Source: Psychrobacillus sp. FSL K6-2836
GTDB taxonomy: Bacteria > Bacillota > Bacilli > Bacillales_A > Planococcaceae
DNA length: 64,000 nt
Reading direction: 5' to 3'
Assembly (NCBI RefSeq): GCF_038003085.1
Contig: NZ_JBBOOM010000001.1
Location: 1,674,001 to 1,738,000, forward strand
The notes under the pieces were generated by a model. That model saw only the letters and a program-made list of their open reading frames with translations, made no database searches and was not told the DNA's origin. Both the position numbers and the translations under genes were made by a program. This document shows, one piece after another, positions 12,642 to 15,293 of this stretch (position 1 is the stretch's first letter; each line of letters begins with the position of its first letter).

Positions 12642-12688
12642 GTACTTACTAATAAACAATAAATAATAATAAAATGGAGGAATTTAAC

Positions 12689-12862
12689 ATGATTAATAAT
12701 TCTATCGCAGGACAAAAATGGTGGAAGATAGGCGCAGCAGCATTCTTATCTGCAGGCTTATTAGCAGGGTGTGGTGATGGAGAAAACGAATCAGATGTAG
12801 ATGATAATATCGAAGAAGATATTGAGCAAGAGCTTGAAGAGGAAGATAAAGACGGAGAGTAA
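12689..12862 (+). CDS. Small acidic lipoprotein (paralogue 1)
   Basis: This 57-residue protein starts at ATG 12689 with GGAGG 8 bp upstream; an upstream in-frame ATG at 12674 overlaps that site and is less likely. It has the pattern NSIAGQKWWKIGAAAFLSAG followed by lipobox LLAGC, then an almost wholly acidic tail (Asp/Glu from about residue 33 to the end). It is a clear paralogue of the next gene. No known function. After lipidation the mature form would be a short polyanionic peptide on the outer membrane face. Confidence 0.7.
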   Translation: MINNSIAGQKWWKIGAAAFLSAGLLAGCGDGENESDVDDNIEEDIEQELEEEDKDGE

Positions 12863-12888: not shown

Positions 12889-13101
12889 ATGGCTACAAAT
12901 TCAATTACAGGACACAAGTTGTGGAAAATCGGTACAGCAGCGTTTCTATCAGTAGGGTTGTTGGCAGCTTGTGGAGATAATAACGATGATGATGATCTAA
13001 ACGATAATCCCGTAGAAGAAGATGTGGATGTAAATATTGAAAACGATGAAAATGTGGAAGATACTGACGGGGAAAAAGAAGACGTAGAAGATACCGAATA
13101 A
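12889..13101 (+). CDS. Small acidic lipoprotein (paralogue 2)
   Basis: This 70-residue tandem paralogue of the preceding gene has NSITGHKLWKIGTAAFLSVG followed by lipobox LLAAC, then a tail rich in Asp, Asn and Glu. GGAGGAGG precedes the ATG and the gap between the genes is 26 bp, so they are probably co-transcribed from the sigma-B-like promoter. Conservation is highest in the signal segment (WKIG.AAFLS.GLLA.CGD), while the tails differ. Function unknown; the acidic tail could bind cations or cell-wall material, which is speculation. Confidence 0.7.
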   Translation: MATNSITGHKLWKIGTAAFLSVGLLAACGDNNDDDDLNDNPVEEDVDVNIENDENVEDTDGEKEDVEDTE

Positions 13102-13185: not shown

Positions 13186-13345
13186 ATTATTTACATGTAC
13201 AAGTTCCTTTCCCATTTAGTTTGTTGCATTTTTTACACTTTTTGTTGGTAATCCTATTCACTTCCTTTTAACGATTTACACCATAATATGTTGGTATTGG
13301 ATGTCCAATTACACTCAATATTCGACAAATACATAAGTTGATGTT

Positions 13346-13716
13346 TGTGGATAAAGTTATACACAATTCAAATCAAGTTATATCTATAATAAGTTAGACA
13401 AAATAATAGTAATCCACATTTTATCCACTGAATATTGTGGATAAATATTTATATATTAACATTTTCCCTTCTGCTATATCTAAAAAATATTAAAAACAGG
13501 GATTAATTTTGACAAAACCTAAAATAATTCTTTTTTTTTCATAGAAAAATGTTTTTAGAACCTTATTCTGAATGATTTTCATTGAAATTTTTCGACATTA
13601 TTCGACTTTTCAATAATTGTGGATAACTTTATACACATAATTCACACTGATATATATAAGTTTTATCTTCCTATTAACAACTTATTCACATATTATCCAC
13701 TTTCACCTGTGGATAA
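13346..13716. promoter_or_regulatory. DnaA-box cluster upstream of sda (two identical-spacing modules)
   Basis: Four perfect DnaA boxes (TTATCCACA, all on the minus strand) lie at 13346-13354, 13436-13444, 13618-13626 and 13708-13716. Three fit TTATNCACA on the plus strand: 13357-13365, 13629-13637 and 13682-13690. Three more carry one mismatch to TTATCCACA: 13410-13418, 13421-13429 and 13693-13701. The boxes form two modules of five with the same order, orientations and offsets (0, 11, 64, 75, 90), exactly 272 bp apart. No dnaA, dnaN or other origin gene is nearby, and sda begins 187 bp downstream. In B. subtilis DnaA activates sda through such boxes, so a regulatory cluster is favoured over an origin. 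Confidence 0.9.
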
Positions 13717-13903
13717 TAGAACAGTTGTTCTTAAGTGCGATATTTGTTAAATTAGTCTTAGAAAGATTACTTATTTTTTTACTTAATTAGCCTTAATCAT
13801 TGCCGGCCTTAAAGTTTTTAAATTTTGTTACACCAGCTTACACAGAAGCATATATATATATATTTTTCCATATTGATTAATGAAAACGGAGGTGCTAGGA
13901 TTT

Positions 13904-14038
13904 ATGAGTAAAATGTCTGACGATCTTCTAATCGAGGCTTATTTAACAGCAAAAAAACTAAAACTAAGTCCAGAATTTCTAGAACTATTAGAATCCGAAA
14001 TTGCTCGCCGGTGCTTAACGATTCAAAGCGTTAGTTAA
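13904..14038 (+). CDS. sda: Sda, DNA-damage/replication checkpoint inhibitor of sporulation kinases
   Basis: This short gene encodes 44 residues: MSKMSDDLLIEAYLTAKKLK, then LSPEFLELLESEIARRCL, then TIQSVS. It matches Sda (about 46 residues, helical hairpin): the SDELLIESY-like SDDLLIEAY, the leucine pattern of both helices, and the EIxRR motif (EIARR). Sda blocks autophosphorylation of histidine kinases such as KinA, holding sporulation until replication is in order (established in B. subtilis). GGAGG at 13888-13892 and the ATG at 13904 are well spaced. The 10-box DnaA cluster upstream supports the call strongly. It is the only gene between the lipoproteins and the SASP. Confidence 0.92.
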   Translation: MSKMSDDLLIEAYLTAKKLKLSPEFLELLESEIARRCLTIQSVS

Positions 14039-14199: not shown

Positions 14200-14397
14200 T
14201 TAGCTAAATTGATTTCCATTCATTTGTGATTGGGCTTGAGCTACTAAACGCTTAGTAATTTCTCCGCCAACGGAACCGTTAGCACGCGCTGAAGCTTCTC
14301 CTCCAAGTTGAACACCGAATTCTTGAGCGATTTCATATTTCATTTGGTCAAGAGCTTGTTTAACGCCTGGTACTACAAGTTGATTGTTGTTTGGCAT
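14200..14397 (-). CDS. Alpha/beta-type small acid-soluble spore protein
   Basis: This 65-residue protein starts at ATG 14397, preceded by AGGAGGTG at good spacing. An in-frame GTG at 14406 overlaps that site and is rejected. It has the family hallmarks: [15 protein letters not shown] containing the germination-protease cleavage context (E(I/F)A), [15 protein letters not shown] in the second conserved block, and a Gln/Asn-rich end. These proteins coat spore DNA and protect it from UV and heat, and are degraded at germination. Paralogues elsewhere in the genome are expected, so no specific ssp letter is assigned. Confidence 0.95.
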
Positions 14398-14419
14398 GTT
14401 GTTCACCTCCTTGTAAGCT

Positions 14420-14498: not shown

Positions 14499-15293
14499 TT
14501 ACTTTTCTAGGATTTGGTGAATCACTTCGTTCGCTTTACTGTTGTTTAAATTTTTATAAATACAGCTTGCTGGGGAATCCCTTAGTGTCTCTGTAAATGC
14601 ATTCGCCATTTCTGCCTCTCCTGCAACATGAAACTCTCGCCAACCTCGTTTTTTCTTTAACTGTTCAATGGTTGTTCTCATACCTTTGTAAAAGGTACTC
14701 GCATTGGATCTGTATTTCGTGTCTAATACAGCAGTTTTGCTATCAGCAGTTGCTCGTCTTCCCCGACTATCTAATTTGACCTTTTCATTCCACGTTTCAG
14801 AAACTGGGTCATATTTGAACGTTACATCGTCTCGTACAAAGCCTAATGCAGTGTCTAAAATACGAACTTCCCCAAAGCTAGGCATGATTATACCTGCTTC
14901 TGGATATGCTTTATACATATACTCCAGTTGTTCTGTGACAGGATGATTTTCCCAATAGAAATTTGTTTTTACAGGAACCTGCACATAATGAACAGACCAT
15001 AAATCATCATTTGCACTAGCAAAAATGACAGCACCCTTACGTAACTCCAATGAGTTTTTTTCCATTTCATTTTTAACTTTTTCCTTTACATGATTAAATG
15101 CTTTTAATTCCTTCTCATCACCTGAAGCTTCTATATATTCTCCGATACGCTTCAAGCCACTTTTCAAGTGAATCCCCCAAGCACCATTTAGTTGCTCAGG
15201 ATCTCCAGGATTTGTATTCAAATAAATACTCAAAACACTTCGATCCATACTTGAGTATGCATTCAGCGCTTGAATTTCTTTATTTATCGTCAT
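14499..15293 (-). CDS. VLRF1-type aeRF1-like protein (bacterial release-factor-family homologue)
   Basis: This 264-residue protein has SVLSIYLNTNPGDPEQLNGA near the N-terminus, LRKGAVIFASANDDLWSVHY around residues 84-103, and VPVKTNFYWENHPVTEQL. A C-terminal half with GWREFHVAGEAEMANAF follows. I recognise this as the Bacillus protein usually annotated VLRF1 family aeRF1-type release factor, related to archaeo-eukaryotic release factor 1 and Vms1. Family members are thought to act on ribosomes, possibly releasing stalled peptidyl-tRNA, but this is not shown for this branch. The Gly-rich catalytic GGQ of true eRF1 is not visible. A ribosome-binding site AGGAGGAAG precedes the ATG. Confidence 0.65.
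   Translation of the reverse strand: MTINKEIQALNAYSSMDRSVLSIYLNTNPGDPEQLNGAWGIHLKSGLKRIGEYIEASGDEKELKAFNHVKEKVKNEMEKNSLELRKGAVIFASANDDLWSVHYVQVPVKTNFYWENHPVTEQLEYMYKAYPEAGIIMPSFGEVRILDTALGFVRDDVTFKYDPVSETWNEKVKLDSRGRRATADSKTAVLDTKYRSNASTFYKGMRTTIEQLKKKRGWREFHVAGEAEMANAFTETLRDSPASCIYKNLNNSKANEVIHQILEK

What the first reader, a model, noticed from the sequence alone, without database searches (positions are those of the whole stretch)
13346..13716. Two five-box DnaA modules with identical internal spacing, exactly 272 bp apart, upstream of sda
Seen directly: boxes at 13346(-), 13357(+), 13410(+), 13421(+) and 13436(-) are matched by 13618(-), 13629(+), 13682(+), 13693(+) and 13708(-). Every pair is offset by exactly 272 bp, with the same orientation, while the sequence between boxes has diverged. 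Four boxes are perfect and three fit TTATNCACA. A TTCGACA also lies about 25 bp before each module (13321 and 13591). Known: DnaA activates sda in B. subtilis. Inference: an old duplication in which box geometry was kept under selection, so two DnaA arrays on the same helix face (272 bp is close to 26 turns) may read the replication-initiation state cooperatively.
Basis: partly seen in the sequence, partly recalled or inferred. Interest (0 to 1): 0.85.

Follow-up and report, generated by a model that had tools for sequence, protein, structure and literature searches.

The report
Doubled DnaA switch before sda
The control region of the sporulation-checkpoint gene sda carries a rigid set of binding sites for the replication starter DnaA that is kept across spore-forming bacilli, and in this bacterium and most sampled species of its genus there is a second copy of that set whose sites look preserved by selection.

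Summary
Confirmed: two DnaA-box arrays (13346-13444, 13618-13716) have identical geometry (-0,+11,+64,+75,-90), 272 bp apart. The geometry is not specific to the pair: it is the conserved sda operator of bacilli, found in 171 of 172 distinct sda upstream regions (28 of 29 when found by Sda protein alone), including the presumed B. subtilis locus.

The fuller plan is a Spo0A-type box (TTCGACA) about 28 bp before the first DnaA box, up to seven DnaA boxes, a LexA box 2-3 bp after the last one over the -35, and an extended -10. The proximal array has all of this; the distal one has only the Spo0A-type box and five strong DnaA boxes.

The genome is Psychrobacillus-like. A second array lies upstream of sda in 10 of 19 genus genomes and, in looser form, downstream in 5; none of 154 other distinct sda regions has one. 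In 8 species the distal array varies at 11 of 45 box columns but 52 of 54 spacer columns. Best reading: a duplicated DnaA operator kept to sharpen sda's response to ATP-DnaA. That role is inferred; DnaA titration is the main rival. The Spo0A-type box suggests direct Spo0A feedback on sda, which my paper searches did not find reported.

The parts
13321..13327 (-). Spo0A-type box (TGTCGAA read on the minus strand), distal array, 25 bp before its first DnaA box
   Evidence: exact 25-27 bp before the first box in 7 of 10 species with the upstream distal array
13346..13354 (-). distal array, DnaA box -0, TTATCCACA
13357..13365 (+). distal array, DnaA box +11, TTATACACA
13410..13418 (+). distal array, DnaA box +64, TAATCCACA (1 mismatch)
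13421..13429 (+). distal array, DnaA box +75, TTATCCACT (1 mismatch)
13436..13444 (-). distal array, DnaA box -90, TTATCCACA
13591..13597 (-). Spo0A-type box, proximal array, 27 bp before its first DnaA box; near-match half site TTCGACT at 13601-13607
13618..13626 (-). proximal array, DnaA box -0, TTATCCACA
13629..13637 (+). proximal array, DnaA box +11, TTATACACA
13638..13646 (+). proximal array, weak DnaA box +20, TAATTCACA
13671..13679 (+). proximal array, weak DnaA box +53, CTATTAACA (consensus TTATaAACA)
13682..13690 (+). proximal array, DnaA box +64, TTATTCACA
13693..13701 (+). proximal array, DnaA box +75, TTATCCACT (1 mismatch)
13708..13716 (-). proximal array, DnaA box -90, TTATCCACA
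13719..13730 (.). LexA-type box GAACAGTTGTTC, 2 bp after the last DnaA box; absent from the distal array
13725..13753 (+). predicted sda promoter: -35 TTGTTC (13725-13730, inside the LexA box), 17 bp, TG plus -10 TAAATT (13748-13753)
   Evidence: TGnTA 25-27 bp from the LexA box start in 155 of 156 loci with an exact LexA box
13904..14038 (+). sda, 44 aa, sporulation inhibitor; GGAGGTG ribosome site 9 bp before the ATG
   Evidence: Pfam PF08970
13145..13188 (.). strong hairpin (-25.8 kcal/mol, z -7.3), likely terminator that insulates the region from the upstream genes

Best explanation
The proximal array (13591-13753) is the conserved control element of sda. ATP-DnaA is taken to fill a rigid seven-box array ending next to the -35 and to activate an extended -10 promoter; LexA bound over the -35 represses it; a Spo0A-type box sits just upstream. 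The distal array (13321-13444) is a second, trimmed copy of the Spo0A-type box plus the five strong DnaA boxes, without LexA box or promoter. It probably goes back to about the root of the genus and its boxes are kept by selection. Most likely it acts as an auxiliary array that raises local DnaA occupancy or loops to the proximal array, making sda respond more steeply to ATP-DnaA and hence to replication initiation. Shown here: sequence, geometry, conservation contrast, phylogenetic range. Shown by others in B. subtilis: DnaA binding and activation, LexA repression. Inferred: DnaA binding in this species, age and role of the second array, Spo0A binding.
For: Geometry at sda in 171 of 172 distinct upstream regions, last-box offset 89-91 in 166 of 171; in loci found by the Sda protein alone, 28 of 29 distinct; the same flexible scan found nothing in the rest of the window. 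The presumed B. subtilis locus L245 has boxes at 0, 11, 65, 76, 91 plus LexA and Spo0A-type boxes. Published data on that promoter: seven boxes, boxes 4-7 needed at 55 nM DnaA, boxes 1-2 important for full activation, about 50-fold more DNA recovered with ATP- than ADP-DnaA at 55 nM (PMC4447404 passages). Distal array: 11 of 45 box columns vary against 52 of 54 spacer columns in 8 species; in five close species its boxes are 92.7% and its spacers 58.1% identical, against 61.1% at fourfold sites of a neighbouring gene. A profile of the element scores the two window arrays at E 2.5e-22 and 3.9e-15 (both are among its 29 training rows); the next match in that genome outside this region is E 0.003.
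Against: No binding or expression data exist for this species. 4 of 19 genus genomes have no second array, and in 5 it lies downstream of sda in a looser form, so a fixed upstream enhancer position is not required. Distal and proximal spacers agree no more than by chance. The distal array lacks the two weak boxes, one of which is probably among boxes 4-7 that B. subtilis needs at low DnaA. Intergenic stretches around the arrays are also conserved in the five close species (interval between arrays 75%, 150 bp upstream 82%), so the region may hold something else as well.
Confidence: 0.55

Rival explanations
1. The second array is a DnaA sink (a DnaA-box cluster in the sense used for B. subtilis): it binds ATP-DnaA and tempers replication initiation, with little effect on sda.
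For: Removing six DnaA-box clusters outside oriC causes early initiation in B. subtilis (review PMC5295017, passage). The second array sits upstream in 10 and downstream in 5 genomes, as a position-tolerant sink would. It lacks promoter and LexA box.
Against: A sink need not stay next to sda, yet the 13 profile hits at E below 1e-9, in 9 of 10 genomes searched, all lie at sda. Rigid box spacing and the retained Spo0A-type box are not needed for titration. [quoted passage not shown] subtilis.
Confidence: 0.22
2. The second array serves another gene: the divergent 24-aa Cys-rich ORF (13187-13261, minus) in the window's clade, or the membrane-protein/DUF2653 operon downstream of sda in the other group.
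For: The micro-ORF is present in all six clade I species at a constant distance (108-110 bp from its Cys motif to the distal array). In four of five genomes with a downstream array, that array lies between sda and the operon.
Against: Of four other species with the upstream array, three have no such micro-ORF within 1.5 kb by a crude Cys-motif search and one has a similar ORF about 570 bp away. The output end of the distal array (the -90 box) faces sda. The operon is also present without a nearby array in six genomes (G001, G003, G010, G012, G017, G018).
Confidence: 0.12
3. The distal array is a decaying relic or a chance assembly without function.
For: It lacks the weak boxes and the LexA box; 4 of 19 genus genomes have no second array.
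Against: Its boxes are far more conserved than its spacers or fourfold sites. Chance is excluded by the 14-mismatch runner-up in 64 kb.
Confidence: 0.04

Closest known systems
DnaA-activated, LexA-repressed sda promoter of Bacillus subtilis
   Same: Same gene, same array plan (0, 11, 65, 76, 91), LexA box directly after the last DnaA box, Spo0A-type box upstream
   Different: One array there, two here; the distal one lacks LexA box, promoter and the weak boxes
B. subtilis extra-oriC DnaA-box clusters (DBCs)
   Same: Dense DnaA boxes away from oriC
   Different: Outside the sda regions the profile finds only weak matches (E 5e-5 or weaker) in the ten genomes searched; titration not tested here
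Spo0A boxes overlapping DnaA boxes at B. subtilis oriC
   Same: Spo0A-box consensus TGTCGAA together with DnaA boxes (PMC5295017 passage)
   Different: At sda the Spo0A-type box is separate from the array, 25-30 bp before it in 157 of 171 loci

Membership tests
B. subtilis-type sda control region (proximal array) | sda downstream on the same strand | tested here: met
B. subtilis-type sda control region (proximal array) | seven DnaA boxes in the conserved geometry | tested here: met
   two of the seven are weak
B. subtilis-type sda control region (proximal array) | LexA box directly after the array, over the -35 | tested here: met
   13719-13730
B. subtilis-type sda control region (proximal array) | DnaA binds and activates | not testable with these tools
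   published for B. subtilis only (PMC4447404 passages)
B. subtilis-type sda control region (distal array) | LexA box next to the array | tested here: not met
   each of the 20 genomes has one exact LexA box in the region scanned, at the proximal array
B. subtilis-type sda control region (distal array) | five strong DnaA boxes in the same geometry | tested here: met
Spo0A box | exact TGTCGAA consensus | tested here: met
   13321 and 13591 on the minus strand; consensus from PMC5295017
Spo0A box | bound by Spo0A~P | not testable with these tools
   a Spo0A gene is in this genome; no binding data
DnaA-box cluster that tempers replication initiation | loss causes early initiation | not testable with these tools

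The most novel reading that the evidence does not exclude
The sda region of bacilli is one rigid nucleoprotein switch that joins three inputs on about 170 bp: Spo0A~P (sporulation commitment), ATP-DnaA (replication initiation) and LexA (DNA damage). Spo0A~P binding beside the DnaA array would close a direct feedback loop on its own inhibitor Sda, and Psychrobacillus doubled the Spo0A/DnaA part to make the replication input ultrasensitive. Box spacing that changes by about one helical turn in a few lineages supports a phased DnaA complex.
Probability: 0.3. Interest if true: 0.82.

Novelty: new variant of a known kind. Interest (0 to 1): 0.62.

Why it matters
PMC4447404 says that there were too few regions to define what makes some DnaA sites strongly ATP-selective; sda was among the most selective (passages). 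The conserved geometry reported here (offset 90 +/-1 in nearly all loci, with cases near +11 bp in two families) gives that question a defined, testable grammar across many genera. A genus in which most sampled species carry a second array is a natural experiment on how copy number of a DnaA operator shapes the sporulation checkpoint. The Spo0A-type box at a fixed place would, if bound, connect the sporulation master regulator directly to its own checkpoint gene.

Tried and rejected
Helical phasing between the two arrays: distances fit 10.5 bp per turn but not 10.4, 10.6 or 11, and few are independent; kept as suggestive only. Duplication shown by spacer homology: not supported. A-to-B length constraint: in six clade I species the interval between the arrays has 1 gap column of 173 (3 of 174 for five of them), while proximal array to sda has 115 of 192. 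But 150 bp upstream of the distal array has only 5 gap columns of 152, so this may be a general lack of indels there. Downstream arrays as moved copies of the distal array: in all five the best score against a clade II distal array beats the score against the own proximal array, but margins are modest and some clade II distal arrays score below it; unproven. TTCGACA as a chance repeat: rejected, exact at -30 to -25 in 157 of 171 loci against 0.007 per 100 bp elsewhere in the same loci. Other copies of the element in the genome: no strong one (only 150 first-look candidates per genome were scored). Paper on Spo0A boxes at sda: searches gave none, one search listed one on CdsR/LrgAB that I did not open, one search listed 15 of 20 papers, of which I searched passages in four and saw no mention. 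Burkholder 2001, Molle 2003 and Veening 2009 are recalled and were not readable; Okumura 2012 is not held.

Rows and limits: repeated upstream regions were dropped, 222 loci with sda giving 172 distinct. Many of these loci came from the box pattern itself, so the independent figure is the Sda-protein set. One sda-like hit (L024) has no array. Of the 23 pattern matches in 21 loci without sda, five have offsets 89-92 (L084, L117, L139, L164, L174); in L084 and L117 sda may lie just outside the stretch, the other three were not followed up. The five-box scan misses the downstream arrays; a looser four-box scan finds them.

Full report
OBSERVATION. Scored against TTATNCACA with the geometry -0,+11,+64,+75,-90, the two arrays have 1 and 2 mismatches in 40 scored letters; the next best place on either strand of the window has 14. 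Seven of the nine exact TTATNCACA matches of the window lie in these 371 bp. The downstream gene is sda (13904-14038, Pfam Sda E 1.9e-18).

WHERE THE WINDOW COMES FROM. The genus holds 19 genomes here, all with sda. Four of their contigs have the same lengths as contigs named Psychrobacillus soli, P. vulpis and two Psychrobacillus spp., so the window is from Psychrobacillus (inference).

THE GEOMETRY IS THE ANCESTRAL sda OPERATOR. I searched with a pattern that fixes the first two boxes and leaves the third free over 31 spacings. In 261 family genomes 36 have a match, in 398 class genomes 58; the control (pattern read backwards) had none in either search. Many genomes without a match may lack sda: in a smaller sample only 34 of 61 had an Sda match. 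97 hold sda, and each of these has one match within 220 bp upstream on the same strand, with third-box offset 90 (73), 91 (20), 89 (3) or 92 (1). The 23 matches in the 21 loci without sda are spread over offsets 76-100; five of them have offsets 89-92, and for two of these sda may lie just beyond the stretch. With loci found only by the Sda protein, 28 of 29 distinct loci have the array. Over all 172 distinct sda regions, 171 have it: offsets 89 (6), 90 (101), 91 (59), 92 (1), 101 (2), 102 (1), 114 (1). Collapsed to 70 clusters by spacer similarity the offsets are 89 (5), 90 (41), 91 (19), 92 (1), 101 (2), 102 (1), 114 (1). The 101 and 102 cases come from families f19 and f13 of the sample, which suggests tolerance for one added helical turn; the single 114 case does not fit whole turns well.

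FULL ANATOMY. The consensus is TTTTCGACAAA, then DnaA boxes -0, +11, +20 (weak), +53 (TTATaAACA), +64 (TTAatCACA), +75 (TTATCCAC), -90, then GAACggTTGTTC and TGnTA. TTCGACA is the reverse complement of TGTCGAA, given as the Spo0A-box consensus in PMC5295017 (passage). It is exact at -30 to -25 in 157 of 171 loci, or 58 of 70 clusters, against 0.007 per 100 bp elsewhere in the same loci. GAACN4GTTC follows the last box by 2-3 bp in 156 of 171, or 57 of 70 clusters; that this is the LexA consensus of B. subtilis is recalled. TTGTTC at the end of that box is placed as a -35 with a 17-bp spacer, and TGnTA lies 25-27 bp from the LexA box start in 155 of 156. A blind best-match promoter scan agreed with this -35 place in 33 of 156 loci, its commonest single place. 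Promoter consensus sequences are recalled. The presumed B. subtilis locus L245 (Sda sequence and position match my recollection of strain 168) has the same parts. Literature: the B. subtilis sda promoter has seven DnaA boxes, boxes 4-7 are needed at 55 nM ATP-DnaA, boxes 1 and 2 are important for full activation, and about 50 times more DNA is recovered with ATP- than ADP-DnaA at 55 nM (PMC4447404, passages). LexA repression of sda is stated in PMC11925247 (passage). Matching those box numbers to my geometry (1, 2, 3 = 0, 11, 20; 4-7 = 54, 65, 76, 91) is an inference from count and order.

THE SECOND ARRAY. A four-box scan finds a second array in 15 of 18 distinct genus regions and in none of 154 other distinct sda regions, 143 of which have at least 600 bp upstream and 450 bp downstream. 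By genome it is upstream of sda in 10 of 19, at 271-273 bp (7), 263 (2) and 285 (1), downstream of sda in 5 (G005, G009, G011, G013, G016), and absent by this test in 4 (G001, G002, G012, G018). The downstream arrays are looser: their last two boxes are at +76 and -89, and the box at +64 falls below one mismatch; the five-box scan missed them. An unrooted tree of two neighbouring proteins (17 genus members, G002, G009 and the outgroup not placed; some branches with support near 0.5) puts the upstream form on both sides of the genus, so it probably existed near the genus root (inference); four of the five downstream genomes form one clade. The second array keeps an exact TTCGACA 25-27 bp before its first box in 7 of 10 upstream and 5 of 5 downstream cases, and has no exact LexA box. 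In 8 species with offset 90, 11 of 45 box columns vary against 52 of 54 spacer columns (Fisher P 1e-14; columns and species are not independent, so P is indicative). In five close species the distal boxes are 92.7% identical and the distal spacers 58.1%, against 61.1% at fourfold sites of the 14499-15293 gene. Its positions +20 and +53 (57.2%) are not kept, whereas in the proximal array they are 86.7%. So within the distal array the boxes, and little else, are constrained. Against a simple picture, the flanking intergenic stretches are conserved too: 75% between the arrays and 82% in the 150 bp upstream, part of which is the micro-ORF.

ORIGIN. Same box order, orientation, spacing and preceding TTCGACA argue for duplication. 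Spacer identity between the two arrays shows no significant excess in any of the seven species tested (P 0.065 to 0.94), so either the duplication is older than spacer memory or the second array was assembled under the same structural rule.

UNIQUENESS. A sequence profile of the element (29 rows, several from the genomes then searched) was run on ten whole genomes. Its 13 matches at E below 1e-9 lie in nine genomes, all at sda, including the downstream array of G016; the next best are weak, E 5e-5 or more. G037 has no strong match, its best being E 0.02. 150 first-look candidates per genome were scored. In the presumed B. subtilis genome weak matches fall at coordinates 193, 1772 and 644309, which I take from recall to be oriC and the gcp-ydiF region.

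MECHANISM. Proposed: ATP-DnaA assembles on the array, its last box lying next to the -35, and recruits RNA polymerase; LexA competes over the -35; the second array raises local DnaA density or cooperates by looping. Binding and activation are shown in B. subtilis by others; everything about the second array's action is inferred. Its place on the other side of sda in one group fits a position-tolerant role (looping or titration) better than a strict fixed-face contact.

SPO0A. Sda blocks Spo0A phosphorylation (PMC5295017 and PMC11925247 passages). A conserved Spo0A-type box beside the DnaA array would make the output of the pathway act on its own checkpoint. Near-match second half sites about 10 bp away (13601 in the window; ATTC after TTCGACAAA in the consensus) resemble tandem sites, a resemblance recalled and not tested. 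A Spo0A gene is in this genome. I found no paper describing this box at sda; important subscription papers were not readable, so it may be in print.

VERDICT. I rate it a new variant of a known kind, with an open and testable part in the Spo0A-type box and in what a second array buys the cell.

Noticed in passing
window 13187-13261 (-): Divergent 24-aa Cys-rich micro-ORF (VNRITNKKCKKCNKLNGKGTCTCK, GTG start after AAAGGA), present in all six clade I Psychrobacillus genomes; a similar one lies further upstream in G010.
   Followed up: partly
window 12674-12862 and 12889-13101 (+): Two similar small lipoprotein-like ORFs in tandem (LLAGCG / LLAACG motif, acidic tails), no Pfam match.
   Followed up: no
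L258, L262, L264, L266, L269 (G005, G009, G011, G013, G016): A Spo0A-type box plus looser DnaA array lies downstream of sda; in four of the five (not G009, where neither protein matched in the fetched stretch) it lies before a membrane-protein/DUF2653 operon that six other genus genomes have without a nearby array.
   Followed up: partly
L256 (G003), distal array right end: Boxes +75 and -90 lie in a longer inverted repeat (TTAACACCTTATCCACA...TGTGGATAAGGTGTTAA), which could also form a hairpin.
   Followed up: no
L215-L222 (family f16): Box pairs with third-box offset 79-80 and no sda in the stretch; possibly another DnaA-box region such as oriC (a guess; Exiguobacterium loci with offsets 79, 98 and 99 appear).
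   Followed up: no
L139, L164, L174: Array-like matches with offsets 92, 91 and 89 but no Sda match in the stretch.
   Followed up: no
L024 (G020): Sda-like match without any array upstream.
   Followed up: no
window 14200-14406 (-) and 14499-15293 (-): Alpha/beta small acid-soluble spore protein and a baeRF family 5 protein downstream of sda.
   Followed up: partly
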